Source: Membranipora membranacea (lineage: Eukaryota; Bryozoa; Gymnolaemata; Cheilostomatida; Membraniporidae). From it: a DNA stretch of 64,000 nt. Where the stretch lies: positions 2,931,501 through 2,995,500 of the forward strand of contig OU612070.1 in the NCBI GenBank assembly GCA_914767715.1. The letters are read 5' to 3'. The first letter of the stretch is position 1; every line of letters starts with the position of its first letter. A program made the translations under genes and the position numbers. Positions 23,497 through 54,231 of this stretch are shown here, piece by piece. A model generated the notes under the pieces. That model was given only the letters and a program-made list of their open reading frames with translations, made no database searches and was not told where the DNA came from.

Positions 23497-26456
23497 TTAC
23501 TTGCTCTCATCATTAGAGTCTGTTACACCATCTGAGACGGCATTGTTCATAGCCGTCATGTTTCTCTCTTTAGTACCTTTGATAACCTTTTGAAGTTCTT
23601 GAGCTTCTTTCCTATCTTTATACTGACTCATGTAGCATATACAACTATAAATCACCAACAAAACATGGTTAGTAACTCAAAGAATACTAAACTTAAGAAT
23701 AATTACACAATTTTCAGCCTATGCCAGTGGGGTTATTTACTTGTTGGTACCCTTGCCTGCGATTACTGATACCATGTCTGAGACACCGCCCCCCCCCCAC
23801 GAGAGCTGTGCTTGAATTGCATACATATTCATCTACCCCCAATCAAAGGTACTGGGAGATTTGAGCTGCTAAGTGATCTTAAAGGTGGCTGATCTACTCT
23901 ATAAATAACGGTTTCATACAACTCCTTGATACAACATATAAATACTGTTAATATATTTATGGCTGCTACATATGGAGATTTCAGACATGTGTTGACAGTA
24001 GTTATGTATGTAGCTAGTGATAAGGTGCTTTGAAAAAAATTAATAATTTACCATCTGAGAGAGCTAATAAGTCTTTTTATATGGTCAGGAAAAGTGCAGC
24101 TGCACAAGAAAACACGATTCCATCTATACCAGGAATACCATAGGGGAGTAGATGTTAACTATAGCTTAGGCTTAGCTTGTTTGAGGGTTATTCTTAGGCT
24201 TAGCTTGTTTTAGGGTTATTCTTAGCCTTAGCTTGTTTGAGGGTTATTCAATGCAAGCTAGCACAAAATTCTGCTAGTGTAGTAGGGAGTTTATATTGTG
24301 ATGTTCAGGAATAGTGAGCAGGCCATGATTTTGTTAATTCCAGCCTGAGCGGAATGGGTTATGTGTTTGAATGTCGAAAAGTGAGATGTAAGCGAGACTT
24401 ACTAATAACAGCCAAATACTATACAAGGTGCCCACATGAATGCACCCATAGCTTTCCACAGATCACCTACAATAAACAATACAAATCATTATATTACAGC
24501 CTGGGGGGTCTTTCAATTAGAAGCAGTGATCCTTTACCAAAGCAAGTTATCACTATCACATCGCTCAAAATTATCACTCACTTGGTGTTTCAATTAGAGA
24601 AAATCGCTCACAAATCGCTAACTCAGAATGTATATAGTCCCATCAAGTGACTGAGCGATCTGAAAGCGAGACCCCTAGCAGGTATCGCTCACTAAGATTG
24701 CGATTTTGGCTGTTTCTAATTGAAAGACCCCCCTGGTTTGGTACATTATGTGCTATAATTTGTGGCTGTTTGCCCTTGATAAACAAATACGTGCGGACAA
24801 CTCCAAATTGTAACGGCCATTCATCTGCAACATTTTGTTTCACTCGCCCGTGGAACTTCCAATATAAAAACATTTGGGTAGTGAAGCACAAGGGGAGGTG
24901 TGAAATGAAACACATTGAGGCTCATATGTGTTGATGATCCAAATTTTTTAACAGAAAGGAGCACTCTATGAATTTGGCAAGGAGAATAGAACTCACTTGT
25001 GATGAGAAATGTAGCAACCCATGCAGTAAAACTTCCGACGATACCCATAATCACACTACTGCGCATACACGTCTTGGTGAAAGTATACTCTGCTTTGCTT
25101 TTACCACTAGTCGCCTGCAAACCAAAAAAACATCTCATGTCAAATATGTTCAGTAAAACAACTAACGAACATAGACCATAATACCTCGCCGAATAAAGGA
25201 TGCTGAAAGTGGTACAGTTAGTTGAATAAGACACGCTGAATGCAATATTCACACCAATAATGCTGTTGGAGTAGTATAGCTCAAGCTTCAAAGGAATTAC
25301 AGACACAGCTTTTTATTCTGTAACTCATTTGGTTTATCACTTTATTTGGACCCTATTCACTAACCTTTCGTCTCTCTATCATCTCCTCTTTATCGGTGTA
25401 GGTGACTGAAATATTAAATAAAACCATAAATTGCGCAATGGAATAAAGGTGAACCTAAACTGTATAATCTCATGATCACTGACACATCATGTATGCTGGT
25501 ATTATATTCATTTTTCTACACAGTCATAAGTAGGTGGAAGAGGTAGGTGATTCTAGAGGGGTGTTGGACCAAGTGGGAGTACTTTATCCCTGATATGTTT
25601 CATCGATTCACATTAGAGTAACAATATACGGCAAAGATGGTGGTTTGAGCAAGGAAAGACGATTTCTGGATAAACTGAATTTTGGGATACACCTCATCAC
25701 AAGATGACCGATGAAAATGTGAAAATTTGTCACAAACTGAGGAGATCTGAATATCAAGATAGATCATACGCTGCCAGACCAGACCCTCTGCAGACTGATG
25801 GTTATCAAATGCAAGTTAGATGCGGGTTAAAATAATGTGGGCTAAAGTCGCAAGTCTGTCTCTGTCCTCAAGGGCGTGGCCGCCATATTCGGCGCCAATT
25901 TACATGCAGGTCAGAGCACAACTGGGTGTCAATTGAGCCCAATAGCCGGTAGACTGCAGTGGTATTCGAACCCAAGGCCTCCAAAGCTTGCGCGTTAGAG
26001 GGCAGGCACTCTAACCAACTCAGCCACTTCCTACTCCTATATTTGAGTAACAAGAAATATCAGAAATTCAGGTACAAGAAAAGTAGCAAACTTACCCTCC
26101 ATGTAATATATAAGGCCTATTATCACTCCAGCAGTAATATATACCCATTTCAGTGATTTGGTAGTGAGTCCAAACACAGCCTTCTTAGGTGGGTTCTTGT
26201 CGCTTTTCTTAGAAATCTGTCGCCTTTGTTGATGATGAGGAGGAGTTATTACAGCTAACATGGGTCCAGATGAAAGTGAGTAATATCTGTGAATGTGTGA
26301 GGTGATAGCTCTAAAATGAGTTGGTTGCCATAGTTGTTTTCCTCTAAATACACTTTGTTGTGCTAGGGTCAAGGTATTGTTTGTATCTCTAATTAAAAGC
26401 GATGATATTTTACCATAGCTACATCCACACGGAGAGCGCCTTAGAAGCTGGTTCAT
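23497..26456 (-). CDS. Small mitochondrial-type membrane protein with COX20-like core (tentative)
   Basis: Five exons join in phase to 253 codons: 26096-26456 (ATG), 25365-25405, 24997-25114, 23920-24013 and 23497-23644 (TAA). The N-terminus is rich in Arg, Ser and Leu and lacks acidic residues early, as in a mitochondrial presequence. A first hydrophobic segment (about 103-118) is followed by a charged linker. After that, CMRSSVIMGIVGSFTAW begins a second segment (155-173), a third follows, and the tail QYKDRKEAQELQKVIKG is charged. The C-x-R-S...G..GS...TSL-like segment, a second TM and a basic amphipathic tail resemble COX20, the inner-membrane factor that handles COX2 during cytochrome oxidase assembly. 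The extra N-terminal TM is not typical of COX20. The donor of exon 4 is the weakest junction. A TTG-initiated extension upstream of 26456 exists, but the ATG is preferred. Confidence 0.5.
24165..24248. repeat. Three-copy 28-bp tandem repeat
   Basis: Three adjacent 28-bp units of the form CTTAGGCTTAGCTTGTTTGA plus GGGTTATT start at 24165, 24193 and 24221, with one or two differences between them. They lie in the intron between exons 3 and 4 of the COX20-like gene. No coding or regulatory function is apparent. Confidence 0.85.
24503..24733 (-). mobile_element. MITE family F with 21-bp terminal inverted repeats
   Basis: A 231-bp element begins GGGGGGTCTTTCAATTAGAA and ends with its reverse complement, TTCTAATTGAAAGACCCCCC. 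The interior is rich in ATCGCTCA-type motifs on both strands. No transposase is present, so it is non-autonomous. It lies in an intron of the COX20-like gene. A diverged second copy at 3461-3655 shows this is a dispersed family. I could not identify a clear target-site duplication. Confidence 0.75.
25843..26036 (-). mobile_element. tRNA-derived SINE (family C), next to the first donor of the COX20-like gene
   Basis: Read on the minus strand this has a tRNA-like head with GTGGCTGAGTTGGTTAGAGTG (A box) and CTTGGGTTCGAATACC (B box). The body then runs through GCAGTCTACCGGCTATTGG to GACAGAGACAGACTT. The copy at 58424-58623 shares the whole arrangement. Its head begins about 60 bases from the exon 1 donor at 26095. 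I could not define a target-site duplication. Confidence 0.75.
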
Positions 26457-27951: not shown

Positions 27952-28155
27952 TGTAGTTGTTGATGACGCCTTTGCTGGAGTGATGGTAATGACTGAAGAC
28001 TCTGATATGTCTATCACTTCTTCGTCTGTGCCACAGACTGAAGACTCTGATATGTCTATCACTTCTTCGTCTGTGCCACAGACGAAGAAGTGATAGACAT
28101 ATCAGAGTCTTCAGTCATTACCATCACTCCAGCAAAGGCGTCATCAACAACTACA
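27952..28155. repeat. Large inverted repeat with a nested 45-bp tandem duplication
   Basis: Left arm 27952-28030 and right arm 28077-28155 are exact or near-exact reverse complements over 79 bp. Between them lies a second copy of the inner 45 bp of the left arm (about 28031-28075), so the right arm can pair with either. The arms encode a protein-like stretch with DEEVIDISESSV. The structure abuts a decayed LINE on its right side. It looks like a foldback duplication of a once-coding segment. Confidence 0.8.
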
Positions 28156-29119: not shown

Positions 29120-30063
29120 TCAGTATAGCGAGTCGACGATTTTTCCTCCTCTGTTTGTTCGAGACTGGAGGCCTAGTTCAGAGCCAACCGCAGTGACACT
29201 CTCACTGCCTATGATGCAGCTTATAAACCTCATTGCCTGATGTTGAATCATCTCGAGAGACTCAATGTCATTGGTTAGTGTGGGGTCCCAGATCGTGTCA
29301 GCGTACTCCAGTACGGGATGACACACTTGTATAAGCCAGTAGTCACCCCTCTCTAGGAGCATCATGCAGAATGTGTTTGATGGATCCAAGTGTTCTGGAA
29401 GCCTTCTCCCGCTTAAGCGCCATTTGTTGGTCAAACTCAGGGTCAAGTTGCATAATAACACCAAGGTACTTTTTAGCACTAACCATTTCCATACCTATGC
29501 TCCCTAGTCTATACAGAGGCCAATAATCGCGATCTCCAAAAGCTAACACGTGGTAATTGGTGTCATTTAATGGCATTTTCCGCTCAACCGGCCATCTGTG
29601 TATATCATTTATATTTGGCTGAACTCTGGTAGCATCAGCGGGAGTGGAAACTTGTTGGTAGATTAATGTGTCGTCAGTGTAGAGGCTTACACTGCAGTCT
29701 ACAGTAGCTGGGAGATCATTGATGTAGATCAAGGACAACGTTGGTTGACTCCAGATGTGACAGCCAATTCTCCAGACTCTTGACCCATGAGGACAATCCT
29801 TTGTCTCCTGTCAGTAAGAAAGTCTTGGATCAAGATTTATAAGCTGTAGATGTAAATCGGGAACTTTTCTGAGCTTTTCGATCAGGAGGGCATGTGAGAC
29901 CTTATCAAAGGCCTTCTTGAAGTCTAGTAGTACAGCATGTTTTTTACGATTCAGTCGCCTTAGCTAGTTTATGGTATGTGGCACAGAGCTGCGTCTCACA
30001 GGACTTGTCTTTTCTGAAGCCACGTTTTCTGTTGTGAAGGAAGTCAGTTTTTTGGTTCAGTTA
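29120..30063 (-). mobile_element. Decayed non-LTR retrotransposon reverse transcriptase
   Basis: Read on the minus strand from 30063, the order is: RGFRKDKSCETQL (RT motif near the fingers), VLLDFKKAFDKVSHALLIEKL (palm motif A region), SGVNQ near motif B, YINDLPATV followed by SLYTDDT (the YxDD catalytic motif), YLGVIM, ASRTLGSIKH, and finally PVLEYADTIWDP with a C-terminal region. At least two frame breaks occur, near 29740 and 29940. It belongs to the LINE class with chicken-repeat/Jockey-like RT. No endonuclease domain was found upstream. Confidence 0.85.
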
Positions 30064-30630: not shown

Positions 30631-33600
30631 ATGCCACAGATACACTTACAGGGAGTCCCTGTGCAGTTCCCATTTACTCCCTATGATTCTCAGCGTGATT
30701 TTATGACCAAAGTTATTCTTGCTCTACAGAATGTGAGTGCATTATGTCTTACTTGTGTACTCAACCTACTATATATTATATATGTGTTTTGGTAATGATG
30801 ATACATACATGTAGGAAATTTTATAGTGTACCTAAGTGCCCTGTTCACATGTTCTGTAAACTAAAACCTTTCAGTGTTGTATTGTCACTCACATACCATA
30901 CTAGCGCCTGTGTCGTCACATTAACAAACAATAGTATAATCATAATTCAGGTCTTGCTTGCTGCTTCTGGCACTCCATATTAAATTACCTTCTGGCTTTC
31001 AAAAATGGAATAACACTAACATTGACCTTGATCAAACTCAGCGATATATTTGCACTAGTTGTTTGGTTATTAATCGATTGATTACTTTGATAGACAGCTG
31101 AGTAAATGTGAGGACGGAAGAAATCTGAGTCTGAATAACAATATTATTCTTTGGTGCCACGCTCAGTTTGTGTGACAATAAAAATTTTTTTTTTAGACGC
31201 AAAATGTGTTGCTGGAATCTCCAACAGGTACAGGTAAGACGTTGTGTCTTCTATGCTCAGTTCTCGGCTGGCTAGAGACTCACAGAGCACAACAGGATTA
31301 CATGGTGAGACAATCATCAGCTAACACTGAAGAGATGAATCGACTGGAAGAACAGCTGAGGGCTGGAGCTGGTAATGATATGCCCGCTGGTGAGTTTGCA
31401 TTACACTTGTCATGTGACATACTACTGTGTGTTTATTTCTTAACGATACAGTATGATACACATGCCTATCTTCGACTCAGCATAGGTGAGCATTGTCCTT
31501 CATGGCACATAAAACAATGCTTATATTGAATATACCGCAGAAAACCAGCTCTATCTGAACCATCGCTCCTAATATCATTTTCACATTCCGTTTTTCGCAC
31601 TCATTTCGGTAGAATAATCTCTTATTGAAACAGCAGTCAATAACATCATATTTCTTAACTTGTTGACTACCATGTATTTTTATTAGGATTTGGTAATATG
31701 AAGATCAGAGTTATATATGCATCCAGAACACATTCACAGCTCTCTCAGGTGATGAATGAACTGAAGAGAACTTCATACACTGGGTGAGCTTTCTTTGATG
31801 TGTCAGGTCATTATTAGCCGTATTGAAGCCCCGCATATGAGACAGTGAATCTGAAATTGCAAATGAGGTTTGTAGATCAATGGCCTATGGCATCAACTGC
31901 TTAAATATTCTACACCAATGACAGCCCAAGTAACCAAGTTGTGCTTACTCTGAAAAATCTTCAAGATCATTGAAAATAAATGTTTGTATGCCACTGCGAG
32001 CTGGCTACCATACGACTATCATCACCATGCTTGTTATGTTGTTGCAGATTCAGGACAGCCATCATCGGGTCGAGGGATCAGCTGTGTGTCCATCCCACAG
32101 TATCTAAAGAAGTAGGTAATCAGGCTAAGCAGACATCATGTCGGGTCAAAGTGCAGTCACGCACATGTCACTATTACAATAACGTAGAGAGTAAGTATTA
32201 TCTACTTCTGTGTATGACACTGTGTCCTGGGTCTGATGGTTTGTGCTCGTTTGTACTTTGTAAATTATTAACACCTTTGCAAAATGTAAGTGAAGTCTAT
32301 CTCTGGCTGTCCTATAGTCATACAGGGGCTTCGTATTACAAACTGAACTGATCAAGATGCCAGATGTATCGTTAGAAAGCCGCCCACTGCATGATGGTAT
32401 TATATATCTGCTGATTCAACAATTTGGAAATGGATTGACTTCTTTGAAATATTACAAGAGCTAGGATTTTGTGTGTCCTGATTTAGATGTTTGTGCTCGT
32501 TTGAAGAGGCCCAAGGTTGGTCGATGGCTTTTGACTTAATCCCCACTGACTTATATATGATAAATAATTTCACAAAGTTGTAGATAAACTGTGTTGTCCA
32601 GCACCGTTTCTGGCATTGTACAACCCTTCAAATTTCCAGGTCTTTGTACTTGTTGTTTATGGGAAGTTTTAGTATTATCTGCTTTTAGAGAAGAAAGATT
32701 TGATGGACTTTAAGAATCCAGAAAATCCCAAGTCTAACATTTTAGACATCGAAGATCTCAAGAAACTAGGGAATAAACACAAGTGAGCTTCAAAACAGTG
32801 TCCGACTTATAAACACCATAAATATGTCATTACTACCGTCCTTATATGAATAGACATACTAAATCAGTACCAAAAAATATATAAACTGCTCTTAAAAAGG
32901 TTTATGTTGCAAGAAATTATCCTCAAGGTATTGGAATACTCAAAATCAGGTAGGCTATTTGTCACAATTGTCTTAATTCTTCTGACTGAGCGATGTATGT
33001 GTATGTTACAGGTGCTGTCCGTATTACTTCTCCAGAGCTGCAGCCAAGGAGTCTGCTGATATTATTTTCATGCCATACAACTATCTTCTTGACCCCATGG
33101 TGATTATATAACTCTTATTATATGTGTATTATAAGCATTAGTGAGCAGAACCTGTCTCTGTTCTACAGTTCTAACGGAGCATTTGATCAGTGCTGATGAT
33201 CTTTAGAGGTTTATGTAATCTAAGAGTCCTCACTGATTTTAGACCCAACATTTATCTATCTATCATGATACGCCATCCATGTAAAATACCAGACGATAAC
33301 TTCTGTAGCCCACCAGTGTGTGTTAAGTGATGACAGACAATATATGACTGTATTGAGTAAATGATTGTCCTCTTATAGATAAGAAAGAGACATGGTATAG
33401 ACCTGGATGGATCTATTATCATATTTGACGAGGCTCACAATCTGGTAAGTACTATTCCTCATTTCATTTTATTAATTAATTTCTAATAGTTAGTAGGGCT
33501 GATGTCAGAGTAGCGATCATCTCTGGGTATAATACAATTATGTGTTTGCCTTGAGCCTTTTTTATGGCATTTAAGTTTCCTCAGTATGAAATCTAGGGCA

Positions 33601-36600
33601 TCTGTCTGCCTGTCTGTCTGCCTGCTCTCTCTGTCTGCCTGTCTGCCTGCTCTCTCTGCCTGCCTGATCTCTATGTCTGCCTGCTCTCTCTGTCTGCCTG
33701 CTCTCCCTGTCTGTCTGCTCTCTCTGTCTGCCTGCTCTCCCTGTCTGTCTGCTCTCTCTGTCTGCCTGCTCTCTCTGTCTGCCTGCTCTCTATGTCTGCC
33801 TGCTCTCTCTGCCTGCCTGCTCTCTATGTCTGCCTGCTCTCTCTGTCTGCCTGCTCTCCCTGTCTGCCTGCTCTCTCTGTCTGCCTGCTCTCTCTGTCTG
33901 CCTGCTCTCCCTGTCTGCCTGCTCTCTCTGTCTGCCTGCTCTCTCTGTCTGTCTGCTCTCTCTGTCTGCCTGCTCTCTCTGTCTGCCTGCTCTCTATGTC
34001 TGCCTGCTCTCTCTGTCTGCCTGCTCTCTCTGTCTGCCTGCTCTCTCTGTCTGCCTGCTCTCTCTGTCTGCCTGCTCTCTCTGTCTGCCTGCTCTCTCTG
34101 TCTGCCTGCTCTCTCTGCCTGCCTGCTCTCTCTGTCTGCCTGCTCTCTCTGTCTGTCTGCTCTCCCTGTTTGTCTGCTCTCTCTCTGTCTGTCTGCCTGC
34201 TCTCTCTGCCTGCTCTCTCTGTCTGCTCTCTCTGTCTGCCTGCTCTCTCTGTCTGCCTGCTCTCTCTGTCTGCCTGCTCTCCCTGTCTGCCTGCTCTCTC
34301 TGTCTGCCTGCTCTCTCTGTCTGCCTGCTCTCTCTCTGTCTGCCTGCTCTCCCTGTCTGTCTGCTCTCTCTGTCGGTCTGCTCTCTCTGTCTGCCTGCTC
34401 TCTCTGTCTGCCTGCTCTCTCTGTCTGCTCTCTCTGTCTGCCTGCTCTCCCTGTCTGTCTGCTCTCTCTGTCTGCCTGCTCTCTCTAGCGCCAACTCAAA
34501 TAACCCGGTTTTTATTGTTGAGTGAAATTTCAAGAAATATATGAGAATATGCTTACTGGTGACATATGGATCAGCTTTGCAGGCAAACATGCTCATTTGA
34601 TGACATTTATGGTTATTTTCCTAAGAGATAGTTAGGGCCACAGACTATTTGTTTTTGCATTATTTTGTATTATTAGATGCTCTCATATACTGGTTTTACG
34701 ATGTAGAGTTTTCTCTCCTGTTCATTAATAAAACTCATTATCTCTGATATATCCCCTCTGTATACAGAATCAGGTTGCAGAGGACAGTTCTTCAGTAGAG
34801 ATCTCAGCTTATGATATAACATCTGCCTTAGAGGAACTGGATACAGTCATTACATTCGTCGAGAATCACGGGCAGGATTTATTAGAGGGAGACAACTTCA
34901 CTCAAAACAACCAATCAGAAGACAGTATTAATTATGAGCTGCTTACATTAGAGAATCTGATGAAGGTCAAAGGTGAGCTCGCTAACCCTTTGTTCACCTG
35001 CGTCACTTGTGCCAACTGCCAACCCTTTATTTAAAAAGACAAACATAATTTGATGGCAATGGATCGGAGATGATAGCAACATTACATATGTCTATGTTGA
35101 GGTTGGTCTTCTGAATAGTGTCGGTGAAAATGAATGAATGCCTCTTTTCTCCTCAGAATAAACTCCATGAATTGACACATCTTATTACGGCGTGTCCTAT
35201 CTAGGACAATATTTTCGGTTTGCTGAGCATTTATTGATTAATCACTACTGTCTTGCGTCTGAATTGCAGCCGTAGTGCATGATCTGGAGCTGAAGTTAAT
35301 GGCTATAGAGTTGAGTCGAGAGAAAGAACTAAAGAAGGGAGGAGAGTACCTGTATGAAATACTGAGTCAGTGTAAACTAGACTTTGATACTTACCTACCC
35401 GTATATGAGATCATTGACGCTTCTGTAGCTTATCTAACAAGTGGGGGTGAGTGCAATATATGTATGTACCGAACGTGATGAAAAGTAGGAAGGCTTTCAA
35501 AGAACTGCAATTGTTCAACTCTATCCTGATATAACATCATAATATGTTTTCATTTGTTATTAGGTATTTGATCAGGGGCCACACAATTTTTGAAAGGAGC
35601 CTAATTCGTTATAGTGTTCCGGGTTCTTTAAATCTGTATTGTCTTCATTTATCCTTATGACCAACACATGTGCATGTGGCGTAAAAGTCTTGTATGTGTA
35701 TTTGGATAAGGTCAGATGTTTAATGTTGTGTGTCTGCATACTTACTGCTGTAATGGCAGCCCTGTTATGTGAATCTGTAAATGACTATATGGGTGTGAAG
35801 TAATCCATACCTTACTGGATGAAAATATTCAGCGATTCAAATCTAGCAACTTGACCATTAGTTGTTGAGTACACTTGTTAAAATAAACACCGATTTTGGT
35901 TTATAAAGTTTTCTTCATGCAAGTCATAGCAGGGAAATTTGACTTGTGATGTACCGCTTCTTTTCTTTTTCTATCAGGATACTCAGGGACTCATAGCAAA
36001 GCTTTCGGGATGAATAAGCTGATTAACTTTCTCAAGGTTGTGTATGAGAGTGATACTTATAACAAGAGTAAATCTCCACAGCAGAGGAAGGCATTCATAT
36101 CCCAGTTCTATAAGGTATGCTGCATCTATCCTACAAGTGATTCTCCCATGCTTTTACAGCGCCGAAATAAAGTTTCCCTAGCTGGTTATTTTTGTAACAA
36201 AAGGACTTTACATTGTACCCATTACATCATACAGCTATGTATACTTGGTTTTGAGGTTTGTAGTTGTAATTTCATTTGTCTCTTTATTTTGTTAGGTTTA
36301 TATTCATGATAAGCAACCACAGAAGAAGTTCAAGAAAGAGAAAATGTTCGGTCAAGTGTCCAATGATGATGGACCAGGTATATAACCTTCAATTGGATTC
36401 ATCTCCACTGGGACTAAAGCTTATCAAACTCAGATGGAAAATGTCTACTGACTCTCAAAAACATAATAATCGAAACTAGAAGAAAATCTGGTTACTTTGC
36501 TGTTTGGCTTTAATGAGTAATATAAAATCAGAGAATTATTCCCATTAATTTGAAGCTACCTTGGTGCCAAAATTGGCAATAGTCATCGCTTATTATTTGT

Positions 36601-39600
36601 GAGTAGGAGTTCATGTTTAATATTTGTCAACAGAATGATAAGGAGTATTTTCTATCATGCTTTTATGTAGCTGTGTGAATTCTATGTTTGTAGTGCGGAC
36701 GATAGCCTTCTGGTGTTTTTCACCAGGATTCTCTATGCAGGACCTACAGAAGCAGGGAGTTAGGTGTATTCTACTGACTAGCGGTACTCTCAAACCTCTA
36801 GAATCGTTTGCTTGTGAACTTGGCATGTAAGTCTACTGTCATCATTATGATACTTGTCTTGATTGGTTGCAAATAATATTGTAGACAACGCAATTGAGGG
36901 GAATTTGTGTTGCGTACAGCCTGGGGAGTGGAATACTGGTATTACAACAATAGATTTGCCAATATCTAGGAGTTGTCTTCTTAACATCAAGGAGAAGACA
37001 ATTAATAAAAAAAAAAACCAGGATGAGTATGAATTATCCTCTCTCTGATGTTAAGGAGACAACTCCTTAATGATCTTATTCATAGTAAGGATACGGGTTT
37101 TAGACATGCCTGAGACAAAGATTCGTGCACCAAGCTTCATATTTTACTACAATAACATTATTTAGCTGTCAAGTGTAATGATAAGAGTAGCATTATAGAC
37201 AATTTTGTTCTAATTCTTGACAATGTTTAGTGACCACTTGATAGTACTGCTCGTAAGAGTTTGAGAGATTAAAGCTCCTACCAATTTCAGATTTAGTTTT
37301 TGCTGAATTTTTACTTAATTCCTTATGTCATGTTAATATAAGAAGTTCTCAATGTTGATTTTTGGGTTATTATTACAGAGAATTTGCCCAGCAGCTTGAG
37401 AATCCTCATGTGATAAGTCCTAGTCAGATATGTGTGTCTGTGGTCAAACAAGGTCCAGAAAGTGTGACTCTCAACTCTAATTATCAAAACAGGTATGTTA
37501 TTTAGTCATCTGATTTGCATACTCCACAGTTAATACATGCAAGTTTTTAAACTGTTTTTGATATCCCTGTTTTGCGCAAAGTATATATCCTTAAATTATG
37601 GCTCCCCTTATTGTCTAGCTAATTTTTCAATCACTTTCATCTCATGCGTTCAGCGAATCCAACGACTTCGAGCCATAAAGCAAATTTTGTGCATATATAC
37701 AGTAGAGTGAACTGGGTTATATCAAACCACACGCTGTGATTATAATGTCATGCCTATCATTGTGATGCCAAACTATTCACTCTGGCTCCTCCTGAAGATT
37801 AGTGCCATATCACAACCCCTAATACTACACTTTTTAAAAATACTTGACTTTTTCTGCCCATGACGCATGTTTTGTTTTGTTGTTAGGAGTGACCCGAGGT
37901 ACCACGCGTCTCTGGGCTATGCTATCATGTTTTGTTTTGTTGTTAGGAGTGACCCGAGGTACCACACATCTCTGGGATATGCTATCATGTTTTGTTTTGT
38001 TGTTAGGAGTGACCCGAGGTACCACATGTTTCTGGGATATGCTATCATGTTTTGTTTTGTTGTTAGGAGTGACCCGAGGTACCACACGTTTCTGGGATAT
38101 GCTATCATGTTTTGTTTTGTTGTTAGGAGTGACCCGAGGTACCACACGTCTCTGGGCTATGCTATCATGTTTTGTTTTGTTGTTAGGAGTGACCCGAGGT
38201 ACCACACGTCTCTGGGCTATGCTATCATGTTTTGTTTTGTTGTTAGGAGTGACCCGAGGTACCACACGTCTCTGGGCTATGCTATCATGTTTCATTTTGT
38301 TGTTAGGAGTGACCCGAGGTACCACATGTTTCTGGGATATGCTATCATGTTTTGTTTTGTTGTTAGGAGTGACCCGAGGTACCACACGTCTCTGGGATAT
38401 GCTATCATGCAGATAGCTAAGTCTGTTCCTAACGGAATGTTAGTGTTCTTCCCCTCGTATCACATCATGAAACTCATTATTGAGACATGGACTGTAAGTA
38501 CCATATCATCATCTTGCATTGAAATATACATCCTGGAAATAGTAATGTAGGGGAAAAATTCTGACAATTTTCTAGTTAACAACACCAATTACAGGTATGA
38601 AATGATTCTGTGCCTCATCTCCATACGTTACGACCTAAATTCAACTGGACATGACTTCCTTGATTCCATTATCGCTTACTTGACTGACTTACATACTTGA
38701 CTATCAGGCACCAAGAAGAGTTTCAACTAGAATTTGTTTTCATTTCACATATTTATGATGAGCAGATGATGAATGATAGGCTCTTTTACATATCTATGAC
38801 TAAAGCAATCAGCAACAAATTGCATTTCCCCATCGTGTGACTAAGCTTACAATATGTATACATACACATTTACTATGTTCAGAAAGGACACTTACTGCAG
38901 TGTATACAGAGATATAAGCAGATATTTATTGAGCCCACTAACAAGGATGAGTTTGCTCAGGCTATGGAGCAGTATTACGCCATGGTTAACGATCATACAT
39001 CTAATGGTGCTATCTTCTGTGGAGTCTGCCGAGGAAAGGTATGGCCAGTGTTATATTCCCTTACCCTCTATTTATCAGAAAGGTTTAGTTGATCAAATTG
39101 TATCATCATACTAGGCCTTTAGCTCCACCTCCTGGCACAATTATCAATACAGCCCAACAGTCTTAGCACTCATGGGCCCGCATTGTTTGTAATCTGAATC
39201 GAGGAAATATCAAGCGCTATGGTACTGGGTAAGCATGGTGACTGGTTTCGAATTGTTAAACAACATTAAGGGTCGTGATAAGCTTAAAACCTGTTATGTT
39301 CATTTACTTATAGGTTAGTGAGGGGTTAGATTTCGTTGATAAGAACGGCCGAGCTGTGGTCATCACTGGTATTCCCTACGCACCGGCTAAAGACCCAAAG
39401 GTGGTGATGAAAAAAGCTTATCTAGATGAACAACTACGCAAGCCTGGCAAGAAAAGGGTAAGTGACATACTTTCTCAAATGCATCCATATCTGTTTGGGA
39501 GAACAGCCACCATCAGGCTTTCTTTTGTCTGCTCAATGACCAGGATTTAGCGGAGGCCCCTTTAAAATCTGCTTCAGCGCATGTCTCATTACATAACCGC

Positions 39601-45149: not shown

Positions 45150-47234
45150 TGAGATATGAAGACTATAATGACACTCCTTCCCGCAATAGAACATATATCA
45201 CTACTATCCTTAGTAGCAGCATAACCCCTCGTCATCTGACGAACTGATATTTCTTGTCCTGGCTTTTTCATTGTCAATAAAAAAACTCCTGTGCATGCGT
45301 AAACAGGATTCAAATTAGATAGATTAATTATTTTGATACTTTTTCTCAGCTATTTATGTAAAGGGTCTTCTTTGAGCTAACCAAAACTTTTTGTCGTCGC
45401 AAAGAGCGTGCTTTTGGGTGCTATCAGCAATAAAAGTTTAGAAACCACCAGACTTGAAATGCTTATAGTTCTGAAAGTGCTTTTCGAAATCAATCTGTTT
45501 GGTACATCCAACCATAGATTTATTAATAAGGTGTCCAACATACATTCTGCTATTGTTCAGAATAAAGCTGTTTGCTTCGAACATACGAGGCGTCGATTTA
45601 AATCAGTGAGTAAATTTATCTTTCATTTTATCTCAAGCTCTTCACAGTATTATCAATACCAAAGAAAATTCCTCACAATAACACATAAAATCTGTATTAA
45701 CGTAATGTATACTATTACCATCATAAAAAATTAATTAATAGCTCTTGAAATAATCTTGGCTATATATGAACTCATGATTTATAGAGGATTTGGAATGGCT
45801 AGACATAGATATTTTTGTTGCTGAAGGAACTAAACGCTGTGAATCAATATTTTCATCTGGCATCATTAGTTTATAAATTATTCATGGCTGATATTTGTGC
45901 TATGATCCTTTGTGACAGGGTCGATAATCAACTGGCAGGTGCTGATTTTTTAACAGAAGTGTTGATCTCATGACTGCAAGACAATTATGTGACACTCAAT
46001 ACTTTCTTTTACAAACGGCATCGTGGGTCAGCCAAAGGAGAAAAAACTAAGATTGAATAAAACACAGCCGTAGTGCTGTAAATAAGTCTGTAAATAAAGG
46101 TGAGTACATCTTATTCATTTTTGTGATTCTAGACCTAGACCTGTTTTGCACACACAATACTTGATTGCTCTCTCATGTGGCTCAAGCTTTTGATATGTTT
46201 AGTTACATGCTTATGAATAGCGGTTATTGATAGGCAGAGAAAAAATTGCCTGTTTTTTAAATGGAGTAGTTGGACAGTATTTGTGCAATTGAGTTTTCCA
46301 AAACCAGATATGAGAGAGAGAGCAGTTCAGTTTTTTTCTGATATTGTTTACCACCGGCAAACTGTAAGAAGGTATGTGTGGGTTATGATCGTACTCGCGT
46401 CTGAACAAATATTACCACAGATACTGTCACACAGGAGGCAGCGGCTTTAATTGCTGTAGACAATAGACAGATTATATATATATACTTACCTTTAGGAAGA
46501 CCTCTTTAAAAAAGTGTTATCAAACTAAATCTGAGTTCGCAGTAATAGATTTTATTTTTGATTGACATCTACACAATTTTCCAGGTGCAATTAACTCCAC
46601 GTAGCTAGTACAATATTTAATGCTCAATTATGTTCTTTATAGTATTATTATTATTAAGTCAATGTTTTTAATTGAGATTACACATAGACCTAATATACTT
46701 ATTTATATTAAATCTATAAGGGCAGCATGTTATATCCACAGAGCTGTACTGTCGGAGGCTGCGCTCTTCCAATACATTTCGAAGCCTGTAAACCTGCAAT
46801 AACGGTGATTACAGTGATCTGTAAATAGGATTCATCAGAAATTCAACCTGGGGTTATGGGAACCAGTGGTTTGAAGCACCTGATCAACACCGGTTTGTGA
46901 AGTTGTTAGGGCTGATTCACTTGGAGGATCATCCATAGATTATACTAGCACTTCCTCCCACATCGATGTAATCATTATCATTCCATAATGGCTGTAACGA
47001 TTTTACAATCCGTATTTCCTGTTGTTTGTGAATGGCAGTTGGCAGTATAGAGAGCTGATTTCCTGTTAGTAATAACAAAGGTGCAGGATATCAATAATGA
47101 TACGTGAACCGCTGACACACATCTGCATTATCTCCGTTTGCTCGATGATACAGGCATTCATTCTGTGAATGATGGCACATATAATAATATTTCCTGTTAC
47201 TGTGCAGTTGAAGAGTTATACAATATCCTGTTTT
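45150..47234. other. Intergenic region between RTEL1 and DEG/ENaC gene A
   Basis: About 2 kb of AT-rich DNA without a supportable gene. It begins with the RTEL1 3' UTR; AATAAA at 45276-45281 is the likely polyadenylation signal. Small open frames (for example 45408-45734) show no family motif or splice context. No mobile-element ends were seen. Confidence 0.5.
45276..45281 (+). promoter_or_regulatory. Candidate RTEL1 polyadenylation signal
   Basis: AATAAA occurs 127 bases after the TAG stop of RTEL1 and is followed by an A-rich run. It is the first canonical hexamer downstream of the stop codon, giving a short 3' UTR. Confidence 0.6.
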
Positions 47235-47346
47235 GATGCGTATGGGTGGTGTGATTAGGTTTGATGTGTATGGGTGGTGTGATTAGGTTTGATGTGTATG
47301 GGTGGTGTGATTAGGTTTGATGTGTATGGGTGGTGTGATTAGGTTT
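47235..47346. repeat. Four-copy 28-bp tandem repeat upstream of DEG/ENaC gene A
   Basis: Four 28-bp units (GATGTGTATGGGTGGTGTGA plus TTAGGTTT) start at 47235, 47263, 47291 and 47319. The first carries GATGCG; otherwise the units are identical. The array is about 350-460 bases 5' of the presumed ATG at 47696 and could lie in the promoter region. Confidence 0.92.
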
Positions 47347-50600: not shown

Positions 50601-53600
50601 TACCTAGATAGCTTCCACTCTCAGAATTATGGACCTAATGAAAGCAGAACATCGAGTAAAATGATTGATATTTATTGTTGCATTATATGATCATTCCATG
50701 ATAATCTTAATACGTTATTAGTACATTAAACTGAGAAGGGTGATCAGTGTTTTAATTTTGGAGTATAAACTTTTTTAAAGATCTACAAACAACGAATTCA
50801 TTGTTACAGATAAAGCGAGCTGCTCCACCAGCAGATAATAACATGGCTGATTGTTTTGACTCCGAGAATCTGCCAAACACGCTGCAGTACTATCAGAATT
50901 ATTCCTTCAATGCGTGTGTAAATGAGGTTAGAGCTACGGCTCATCAAGATATATGTGGATGCAGAGATTTCTTTGATTCCCGTGAGTATCTTGACTGGCC
51001 CGCTCTGATTGCTCTGATTGCTCTGATCGCCAAATCGCTCTCATTGGCTCTCATTGGCTCTCATTGGCTCTCATTGGCTCTCATTGGCTCTCATTGGCTC
51101 TCATTGGCTCTCATTGGCTCTCATTGGCTCTCATTGGCTCTCATTGGCTCTCATTGGCTCTCATTGGCTCTCATTGGCTCTCATTGGCTCTCATTGGCTC
51201 TCATTGGCTCTCATTGGCTCTCATTGGCTCTCATTGGCTCTCATTGGCTCTCATTGGCTCTCATTGGCTCTCATTGGCTCTCATTGGCTCTCATTGGCTC
51301 TCATTGGCTCTCATTGGCTCTCATTGGCTCTCATTGGCTCTCATTGGCTCTCATTGGCTCTCATTGGCTCTCATTGGCTCTCATTGGCTCTCATTGGCTC
51401 TCATTGGCTCTCATTGGCTCTCATTGGCTCTCATTGGCTCTCATTGGCTCTCATTGGCCAAGCATACGATAGCTTGATTGTCTCTAGCCTTGTAGGTTGC
51501 TATTCAAAAGTAAATATCACTATGTGTAACACAACGATAAGTATACAGGACTTTAAATTGGTATTTCAAGTTACGATAGAGGTAGCCACTGATATGAATT
51601 TATGGATCAGTGGTAATATACACGGCATGGCTGTTTTTGAGGATATTCCATCAGTATATAACTTTGTGTCAGTAACTGCATCAAGCTAAAGTTCTGGCAG
51701 CTTTTTTTGTGTACATTGGATGATGTCCTAGCAACAACCTCCATAAGCACATGTGGAACCAATCAGTTCAGGTTAGTGCTCTTTGCACGTAGCGTTTGGA
51801 ACAATCTAAATGTGCTTGAGCTTTCAAGCTGAAAAGTCACCCAACATGCACTGGACAAAAGTAAACTTGTACTATCCTAGCTACGTTGCAGCGATACTTG
51901 TATCTCAGAGTCAATCAAGCAGTGTGTTAGCTCAGGCAAGCTGCTCGACAAAAATTCACAAGGGGCAGCTGTATTTCATTACTAAACTTGTAGACCAATC
52001 AAAATTGAGTAATGTATTCCAACAACCGGGTCAGGGTCAGATGTATTCCTCTAATCCATATGATATATATCAGTATTATTCAAATGTTATTTATGGCTTA
52101 ATTTTGTATATACGTTCTGCTTCACTTACAGCTATTGAGGGTATACCGTTATGTAATGCCAGTCAGCAAATCAGTTGTATGCTGAACATTGAATGTAAGT
52201 GATAATAACCTAAATTCTTCCAACTACCTCTAAGACAAGTTTTATTTGTCACTGACACTTTATGTTCTTGATACTGTGCCCATACCCATATTGTGCTCAC
52301 CCAGTACTCACACTGTGCCAGGCTGTGCCCATACTGTGCCTATCTTGTGCGATATTTCTTTCCCAGACTTCCAGGCTCAAGAGGACACATCCTCCCAACC
52401 TGCTGGGTAAAATTAGCTCCTAGGAATTCAAATTTAAATATCTTTGGAAGATTGCAAATATAAGAATTGTGATAAAACTCAGAGGTTATAAACAGGGAAT
52501 CATATTCTCATGATAATCATATCGGACGCGAATTCCCTGTTTCAAGATCTTCTTGAGATCAGCTTTCAAAAGATGGAGAATTTTTTTTATTTTTCAATTA
52601 GTCTCTCTTTTCAAAACAGCTTATTTTCCTAATTGACAGGGTCAGACTACAAAGACTATGATCTGAAGGAGCTATGTCCAATACCCTGTGCTCAAACCCA
52701 TTATAAAACACAGATGGCTTTATATGACTATCCTAATCATGCCTACTTCAGCAATGCCTATGGATTAACTAGAGGTGGGTAATACAGTCTAACTACTAAC
52801 TGGGCCCTTTGTTCTTCCCTGAGTATCTCAGGAGGCCATACATGGTAAATGTGGCTCCAACCAAATCCCGATATTGTTTGTTTTGTCTTCTCAATGGCCC
52901 AGATTAATTTAACTGCATCACTGTGACAGCAGCTGGTTCGTGTTCACTCTAGCCTGTCTTGACAAGCCTTGTTAGATGGCCTGTCTAGATTCTCTAATGT
53001 GACGATCGGCGTAGTTATTTGGTTTTTCTGCCAGAGGTAGTACTTTTGCATCTATGAATCCCACTATGCATGATCAATTCGTAAAAGCATCAATTACTGA
53101 GATGCAGCCTGGTACTCATGTTGACAGAAATGACTGATAGTATTGCCGAGGAGCAGATATCTATGATGATATTTTACTCTTCTATGAGTTACGATTATCT
53201 TGAGGAGTATATACCTTACACATGGAAGGACGTACTAGGTAAGTGGAGGAGTATATACCTTACACATGGAAGTACGTACTAGGTAAGTGGAGGAGTATAT
53301 ACCTTACACATGGAAGGACGTACTAGGTAAGTGGTGGAGTATATACCTTACACATGGAAGGACGCACTAGGTAAGTGGAGGAGTATATACCTTAAACATG
53401 GAAGGACGTACTAGGTAAGTGGAGGAGTATATACCTTACACATGGAAGGACGTACTAGGTAAGTGGAGGAGTATATACCTTACACATGGAAGGACGTACT
53501 AGGTAAGTGGAGGAGTATATACCTTAAACATGGAAGGACGTACTAGGTAAGTGGAGGAGTATATACCTTACACATGGAAGGACGTACTAGGTAAGTGGAG

Positions 53601-54231
53601 GAGTATATACCTTACACATGGAAGGACGTACTAGGTAAGTGGAGGAGTATATACCTTAAACATGGAAGGACGTACTAGGTAAGTTGTGAAGCCATCAAAA
53701 GGTCATACTAAAGGTTATAAAAAAAACCAAATATTTAAAATCAAACCTGTTACTGTCGCACCCTTGAAGAATAAAATATTAACAGAAATAAAGGTTTGCT
53801 ATATTTCACATGTGATTGGAACAGTTTTGTTTATGGCTCGGTAACGTTTCCTCACCCTCTTTGCTTCATTATAGCTCCAACCTCCCCTAGCTAGAATATC
53901 TGTTAGCTAAACTAAACTCTAGCTAATATTATGTATTCCTCTAGGGTATGATATTTCCTTCTTTTTTTGGATGCTTCACCAAAGTAACGAGAGAGGGAGG
54001 GCTAACGTTACGACATATTGACTCATTCAAACCACACAAAATGAGGCTGGTATTATCTTTATAATTGCAGCAAACTTGGGAGGTACACTTGGGTTGTGTA
54101 TCGGAGCCAGTCTGCTGACATTTGTAGAGTTTTTCCAGTTCGGGTTTGGAGCTTGTGTCAATGCATGGAACAGGAGAAGAATGCGTAAAACTAATTCTAG
54201 CACTGCCAAACTGGTGCATGCTGCCAGCTAA
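47696..54231 (+). CDS. DEG/ENaC/ASIC-family sodium channel subunit, gene A
   Basis: Subunits of this family form trimeric, amiloride-sensitive cation channels with two TMs and a large Cys-rich extracellular loop. Eleven exons join in phase to 509 codons: 47696-47910, 48462-48591, 48753-48886, 49435-49604, 50041-50177, 50397-50498, 50810-50981, 52132-52194, 52640-52774, 53128-53238 and 54071-54231. Visible: an N-terminal KCKCK cluster, the gating HG motif (57-58) in TTMHGIRYV, TM1 (73-94), the LPKIVIC entry to the loop, paired loop cysteines including DICGC and CPIPC, and TM2 with GLCIGASLLTFVEF. The latter contains the G-A-S selectivity filter at 468-470. The C-terminus is short. Ligand or stimulus cannot be inferred. 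Intron 7 holds a 10-bp minisatellite. The exon 10 donor is duplicated 11 times. Gene B is a downstream tandem copy. Confidence 0.93.
51041..51458. repeat. 10-bp minisatellite, about 42 copies, in intron 7 of DEG/ENaC gene A
   Basis: TCATTGGCTC is repeated without a visible error for 418 bases, with a degenerate lead-in (GCTCTGATT...) from about 51003. All three plus frames stay open (SHWLSLALIG repeats), creating spurious 137-223-residue open frames. Each unit holds ATTGG, the inverted CCAAT box, once per 10 bp, close to one DNA helical turn. Confidence 0.97.
53203..53678 (+). repeat. Eleven-copy 44-bp tandem array of the exon 10 5' splice site in gene A
   Basis: The last 37 nt of exon 10 (GAGGAGTATATACCTTACAC to GACGTACTAG), followed by the donor GTAAGTG, are repeated at 44-bp spacing. 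Donors fall at 53239, then every 44 bases to 53679. A C-to-A change (CCTTAAACATGG) marks copies 5, 8 and 11, so the array grew partly as 132-bp triplets. Reading through the first donor meets TAG within one unit, so only the first donor keeps the normal frame. Confidence 0.96.

What the first reader, a model, noticed from the sequence alone, without database searches (positions are those of the whole stretch)
37870..38409. Nine in-frame tandem 3' splice sites feeding one RTEL1 exon
A 60-bp unit with its own polypyrimidine tract, TTAG acceptor and the first 43 nt of exon 14 is repeated nine times. Sixty is a multiple of three and the 17-nt intron part translates as FCFVV without a stop, so the array is one continuous open frame joined to the helicase core. 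Using an acceptor further upstream would insert 1-8 copies of a 20-residue block near residue 544, between the helicase motifs around LTSGTL and VFFPSY. This could be a stochastic length-variation switch or neutral duplication kept harmless by in-frame size. Conservation of all nine AGs and of the exon part is directly visible.
Basis: partly seen in the sequence, partly recalled or inferred. Interest (0 to 1): 0.92.

Follow-up and report, generated by a model that had tools for sequence, protein, structure and literature searches.

The report
Bryozoan minisatellite copies a splice site
In a sea-mat (bryozoan) gene for the DNA helicase RTEL1, a short piece of DNA straddling an intron-exon border has been copied nine times in a row; it is one of many such border-copying repeats in this genome, a kind described before in lancelets, and probably does little harm because the outermost copy is the one used.

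Summary
In detail: nine 60-bp units at 37870-38409, each with 17 nt of intron end, an acceptor AG and 43 nt of exon 14 of an RTEL1 gene, in one open frame. The assembly is Membranipora membranacea (Bryozoa). The array is best explained as a "mirage", a minisatellite over an exon-intron border, as described in lancelet genes. It is not alone: the window holds a second (53202-53684, 11 x 44 bp, 5' splice sites of an ENaC-type gene). In chromosomes 1-3, 18 array families repeat AGGTAAGT, against 1 locus for the reversed word, though both words are equally common. Of the 18, I judge that 10 span the 5' splice site of a coding exon. In nine 5' arrays with both exons readable, only the first of 3-12 donors keeps the frame. 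By analogy, and because the single-copy product aligns gaplessly to FANCJ and CHL1, the last RTEL1 acceptor (38367) is probably the working one; upstream copies are tolerated decoys. The in-frame size looks like chance (at most 3 of 12 units are multiples of three). A length switch is not excluded, but no positive evidence supports it. No RNA was examined; further 3' arrays could not be counted.

The parts
30631..37492 (+). RTEL1-like gene, exons 1-13 (102, 193, 97, 143, 94, 88, 66, 205, 177, 137, 82, 100, 114 nt), ending in phase 2 at 37492
   Evidence: joined in frame, 532 codons and 2 nt; Pfam DEAD_2 5.3e-52 and ARCH_RTEL1 3.4e-25
37870..38409 (+). nine-copy 60-bp array over the intron 13 / exon 14 border (3' splice site mirage); first exonic bases 37887, 37947, 38007, 38067, 38127, 38187, 38247, 38307, 38367
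38367..38493 (+). exon 14 as inferred (last acceptor, 127 nt, helicase motif VFFPSY); 607 nt if the first acceptor is used
   Evidence: acceptor choice inferred, no RNA seen
37866..37869 (+). CATG, also present at the unit's end (38406-38409): 4-bp microhomology, suited to a founding duplication
   Evidence: flanks; reading inferred
53202..53684 (+). eleven-copy 44-bp array over an exon end of an ENaC/ASC-type gene (5' splice site mirage): first donor GT at 53239, then every 44 nt
   Evidence: Pfam ASC 6.6e-13 across the junction spliced at the first donor
54071..54231 (+). next ENaC-type exon, starting after ATTGCAG; reads to a TAA at 54229-54231 (end read by eye)

Best explanation
A tandem duplication, probably at a 4-bp CATG microhomology, copied the last 17 nt of intron 13 and the first 43 nt of exon 14 of RTEL1, and slippage or unequal exchange grew it to nine units: a 'mirage' minisatellite. 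(Shown: anatomy, three identical inner copies. Inferred: the founding event.) It is one of many arrays in this bryozoan genome whose unit carries a splice site. (Shown for 5' sites; RTEL1 is the only 3' case shown.) Splicing most likely pairs the sites that make the shortest exon: the last acceptor in a 3' array, the first donor in a 5' array. The other copies stay inside the intron and the protein is unchanged. (Inferred from reading frames and homology.) Some use of upstream acceptors, adding 20 residues per copy, is possible here because unit and frame allow it.
For: Nine-fold array and near-equal acceptors. Copies 5, 6 and 7 are identical and copies 3 and 8 share their exonic variants; ENaC copies 5, 8 and 11 share one change: usual minisatellite turnover. 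The single-copy splice product aligns to FANCJ and CHL1 with no gap across exon 13/14. The last acceptor gives a 127-nt exon, within the 66-205 nt of the other 13 exons; the first gives 607 nt. Second junction array in the same window. Genome-wide: 442 matches for three tandem AGGTAAGT against 81 for the reversed word, the 81 being 6 loci, while single words number 18,399 and 17,609; AGGTGAGT 287 against 9. The 18 families listed up to C3:34.6 Mb were each read in one place: 10 span a coding exon's 5' site in sense, judged by eye. Frame test: nine arrays, 69 AGGTRAG donors, only the 9 first donors open. Lancelet mirages are reported not to disturb splicing (PMC3087553, section 16 read; PMC3902484, passages).
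Against: No transcript was examined. A scan for the branch motif YTNAY finds a match 40 nt upstream of the first acceptor (TTGAC), one too close to copy 8 (-13), and none within 60 nt of the last: this favours the first acceptor if the motif matters here. All nine acceptors keep the frame, so the frame argument that works for the 5' arrays cannot decide here. The search for further 3' arrays did not complete, so 3' arrays may be rare. In the frame test I chose exons and frame by eye from the first-donor reading; homology across the junction backs ENaC and BLTP1, the FANCJ/CHL1 alignment backs RTEL1, and the rest lean on open frames or recalled names: Pfam gave nothing above cut-off for L026, L028, L029 and L031.
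Confidence: 0.78

Rival explanations
1. Stochastic or regulated length switch: several acceptors are used, giving RTEL1 with 0-8 extra 20-residue blocks between the SGTL and FFPSY motifs.
For: Unit is 60 nt, no stop in the retained intron part; eight acceptors score alike.
Against: FANCJ and CHL1 align across the site without any insertion. Units of accepted arrays are multiples of three in at most 3 of 12 cases. Copies differ by amino-acid-changing substitutions (A/T/M, S/F), so no constraint on the block is visible.
Confidence: 0.08
2. First-acceptor use: scanning from the branch point picks 37887 and the mature protein carries a 160-residue insert.
For: The best-placed YTNAY match lies upstream of the first copy, and 37887 follows the first of the nine acceptor AGs.
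Against: It needs a 607-nt exon and a 160-residue insert in the helicase core; FANCJ and CHL1 lack it; the mirror-image 5' arrays fit the outermost site only.
Confidence: 0.1
3. Assembly or library artefact.
For: Tandem arrays can be mis-sized.
Against: 66-fold HiFi assembly; 540 bp fits in one such read; copies carry distinct variants; many independent arrays.
Confidence: 0.02
4. Arrays as seeds of new introns (duplicated AG|GT sites becoming donor and acceptor, the Rogers model).
For: The model and its mirage version are in print (PMC3087553 section 16; PMC4974935 passages); the ENaC unit CTAG|GTAAGT has both signals.
Against: No gained intron was seen in the genes read; their frames fit the old intron position. 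No systematic search for gained introns was made.
Confidence: 0.05

Closest known systems
'Mirage' minisatellites of lancelets (Adh3, globins BflGb6 and BflGb9, PGBD5, troponin C)
   Same: Tandem copies of a short piece spanning an intron-exon border, at 5' or 3' sites; 60 bp lies within the reported unit lengths (10-72 bp in Adh3, 150-160 bp in globins, 60 and 108 bp in PGBD5); partial homogenisation of copies; gene apparently intact
   Different: A bryozoan, not a lancelet; nine copies of a 3' site in one in-frame block; counted genome-wide (5' sites only) with a control; length instability and RNA not tested here; end copies not set apart as reported for BflGb6
[quoted passage not shown] ATP2A1, potato RdRp)
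   Same: Tandem duplication that includes splice signals
   Different: No new intron is seen; the old intron is only enlarged
Alternative tandem 3' splice sites (NAGNAG and the like; recalled, no call)
   Same: Several in-frame acceptors for one exon
   Different: 60 nt apart, each with its own pyrimidine tract, made by minisatellite growth

Membership tests
Mirage minisatellite | tandem repeat unit spans an exon-intron border | tested here: met
   17 nt intron + 43 nt exon per unit; border supported by homology
Mirage minisatellite | both 5' and 3' borders of genes are affected in the genome | tested here: met
   3': RTEL1, the only case shown; 5': ENaC-type gene and 10 of 18 AGGTAAGT families in C1-C3, judged by eye
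Mirage minisatellite | concerted evolution inside the array with ends excluded (reported for BflGb6) | tested here: inconclusive
   copies 5-7 identical, but end copies 1 and 9 differ from them by only 1 base each; copy 8 is the most distinct
Mirage minisatellite | regular splicing is not disturbed | tested here: inconclusive
   frames fit outermost-site use in 9 of 9 readable 5' arrays; the RTEL1 frame is open for all nine acceptors; no RNA
Mirage minisatellite | copy number varies between or within individuals | not testable with these tools
   second haplotype and reads not held
Regulated tandem acceptor switch | more than one acceptor used in mRNA | not testable with these tools
   no RNA data
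Regulated tandem acceptor switch | in-frame unit size (multiple of three, no stop) | tested here: met
   met for RTEL1, but not a property of the set: at most 3 of 12 units are multiples of three
Intron gain by tandem duplication | a new intron between duplicated copies | tested here: not met
   frames of the nine readable 5' arrays and the RTEL1 homology fit the single old intron

The most novel reading that the evidence does not exclude
In this bryozoan, tandem duplication is drawn to, or kept at, splice sites: a process acting at 5' splice sites yields minisatellites there far more often than word frequency predicts (18 families against 1 locus in C1-C3; about nine-fold if scaled to the 6 control loci of the whole genome), so the genome is rich in side-by-side near-identical splice sites, which are natural experiments on how the spliceosome chooses between equal sites and raw material for new introns.
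Probability: 0.35. Interest if true: 0.75.

Novelty: new member of a known kind. Interest (0 to 1): 0.52.

Why it matters
Arrays of several near-identical donors or acceptors at one intron test directly whether splicing pairs sites across the exon or across the intron: the two models predict opposite ends of the array. The arrays also offer young cases for the old idea that tandem duplication of splice signals makes new introns. They show that the lancelet 'mirage' is not a lancelet peculiarity, and that its frequency can be counted against a control.

Tried and rejected
Sponge origin (my first guess from GC and intron size) was rejected: a Hox cluster with a Lox5-like gene (label recalled) and scaffold sizes give Membranipora membranacea; the same data speak against a lancelet. 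RNA folding of the array: 20 of 20 shuffles fold at least as well (z +6.0), so no hairpin role is indicated. Excess of the word AGGTAAGT itself as cause of the array excess: rejected, the counts are about equal (12 and 13 in 264 kb outside the ENaC array). A megablast of 37800-38500 against E. coli genomes gave nothing, as expected. Other repeats of the window: 24165-24249 and 47232-47346 lie in no frame that I could read as an exon. In the frame scripts some settings were wrong and were corrected: ENaC and L028, L029b and a false eleventh donor of L028, L046; right versions. A search for 3' splice-site arrays (TTTTCAGG three times) was sent many times and never answered, so the 3' side has no genome-wide count. 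The structure of the insert was not modelled.

Full report
What is there. The window holds nine 60-bp units at 37870-38409 (period 60, 9.1 copies, 96% matches). Each unit is TTTTGTTTTGTTGTTAG (TTTCATTTTG.. in copy 8) plus 43 nt that begin GAGTGACCC; 7 of 60 columns vary and all nine AGs are intact. Thirteen exons upstream join in frame (30631-37492) and encode an RTEL1 helicase (ARCH_RTEL1 3.4e-25, DEAD_2 5.3e-52). Exon 13 ends with AG of a split codon; each acceptor supplies G, so all nine acceptors give an open frame into exon 14. With the last acceptor exon 14 has 127 nt, with the first 607 nt; the other 13 exons have 66-205 nt. The single-copy product aligns with no gap across the junction to FANCJ (9ej9) and CHL1 (8rev).

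Where it comes from. The window lies at G000:C6:2931501-2995500 of a 339,339,785-base assembly held in 18 contigs. C1 has 41,072,641 bases, C2 39.53, C3 35.04 and C6 29.39 Mb. The genome note of the sea mat Membranipora membranacea (PMC10290214; passages read) gives a longest scaffold of 41,072,641 bp, the same chromosome sizes, 66-fold HiFi coverage, an alternate haplotype and RNA reads; it counts 21 scaffolds and 339,374,674 bp, slightly more than is held here. A Hox cluster at C1:21.40-21.47 Mb with a Lox5-like gene followed by KLTGPNQKL agrees with a spiralian (the Lox5 label is recalled).

It is not alone. The same window has a mirror-image case: 53202-53684, eleven 44-bp units, each ending an exon with GACGTACTAG|GTAAGT or a near variant in an ENaC-type gene. 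Pfam ASC matches across the junction spliced at the first donor (6.6e-13). A pattern of three AGGTAAGT spaced 22-52 nt finds 442 matches in the genome, the reversed pattern 81. The 81 lie at 6 loci. Only the first 100 rows for AGGTAAGT are listed, reaching C3:34.6 Mb; counted by eye they form 26 loci or 18 families (one 31-bp family is scattered over nine loci). The control has 1 locus in C1-C3. C1-C3 are 34% of the genome, so scaling gives about 53 families against 6 control loci. The single words are about equally frequent, 18,399 and 17,609. AGGTGAGT shows 287 matches against 9. One reversed word per donor is a thin control, and several listed AGGTGAGT arrays are short-period repeats of 9-18 bp.

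What these arrays sit on. I fetched one place of each of the 18 families, in 17 stretches. By eye, ten span the end of a coding exon in sense: L026, L027 (BLTP1-type, Pfam 5.1e-22, under the curated cut-off for the whole model), L028, two unrelated arrays in one gene in L029, L031 (DUF4149 3.4e-4, below cut-off; TMEM205-like is recalled), L040 (IP3 receptor, recalled), L043, L046 and L047 (EGF-like, recalled). For L031 and L047 the next exon was not found in the stretch. Two more are probable: L042 starts at the donor with an intron-only unit, and L044 has its donor on the other strand. Six I do not accept: L030, L032, L039, L041, L045, L048.

How splicing probably copes. In nine 5' arrays with both exons in hand (ENaC, L026, L027, L028, L029 twice, L040, L043, L046) I joined the exon at each AGGTRAG donor: 69 donors (11, 5, 6, 10, 7, 12, 11, 4, 3), 9 open frames, in every case the first donor. 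The frame was chosen from the first-donor reading, so the informative part is that no other donor also works. Unit lengths are multiples of three in 3 of 12 (2 of 12 if L046 is taken as 31 bp), so frame is not what keeps them. First donor in 5' arrays and last acceptor in 3' arrays both make the shortest exon, as exon definition would predict; intron definition predicts the opposite ends (both recalled concepts). This is inference. Against it for RTEL1: the only well-placed YTNAY branch motif lies upstream of the first copy.

How it arose. CATG stands both before the first unit and at the end of each unit, a 4-bp microhomology suited to a founding duplication. Copies 5-7 are identical, and copies 3 and 8 share their exonic variants; ENaC copies 5, 8 and 11 share one change. 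These are marks of ordinary minisatellite turnover. The end copies 1 and 9 are not set apart, unlike the report for lancelet BflGb6. Three of the five variable exonic columns are CpG-to-TpG or CpA changes, which suits methylated DNA but was not tested.

Known kind. Lancelet 'mirages' are tandem duplications of intron-exon borders in Adh3 (units 10-72 bp), BflGb6 (3' border of the intron, 6 and 3 repeat units in two haplotypes) and BflGb9 (end of exon 2), with no interference in regular splicing (PMC3087553, section 16 read in full). The PGBD5 paper reports 60- and 108-bp repeats at splice sites in lancelet and cites Adh and troponin C (PMC3902484, passages). The original Adh paper is not held. 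A search for 'bryozoa', 'tandem repeat' and 'splice site' found 0 papers and one with 'sponge' found 1 unrelated listing; broader searches listed the lancelet papers, a human study of repeats at exon-intron borders (PMC2812944, passages), intron-gain papers (PMC4974935, passages) and unrelated papers. Most subscription journals are missing from the library, so absence from print is not shown.

Verdict. The wider result, splice-site arrays several times commoner than a matched control word in a phylum far from lancelets, is the more interesting part and needs a proper genome-wide scan with gene models and RNA.

Noticed in passing
window 53202-53684: Eleven 44-bp copies of a 5' splice site in an ENaC-type gene; only the first donor keeps the frame.
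   Followed up: yes
L029 (G000:C3:1358900-1362000): Two unrelated 5' splice-site arrays (26 bp x 10.9 and 40 bp x 14.6) at two exons of one gene.
   Followed up: yes
L019:5906-5971 (G000:C6:3031406-3031471), minus strand: Two-copy 32-bp repeat with AGGTAAGT then AGGTGAGT at the end of an open exon-like stretch: a possible newborn array.
   Followed up: partly
window 33601-34486: 17-bp pyrimidine-rich array, 52 copies, inside RTEL1 intron 7.
   Followed up: no
window 51037-51458: GCTCTCATTG repeated 42 times at 100% matches, starting about 55 nt after an apparent donor of the ENaC-type gene.
   Followed up: no
window 27991-28088: 45-bp repeat, 2.2 copies, open on the minus strand as a 15-residue repeat (CGTDEEVIDISESSV).
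   Followed up: no
window 29120-29810, minus strand: Open pieces resembling a reverse transcriptase of a retroelement (recalled motif, not searched).
   Followed up: no
G000:C1:33.57-34.38 Mb: A 31-bp AGGTAAGT repeat family at nine places within about 0.8 Mb; the one place read (L041) shows no recognisable exon.
   Followed up: partly
G000:C1:1.89 Mb, C1:10.37 Mb, C3:6.93 Mb, C5:12.36 Mb: Similar 17-bp AGGTGAGT-bearing repeats at four distant places.
   Followed up: no
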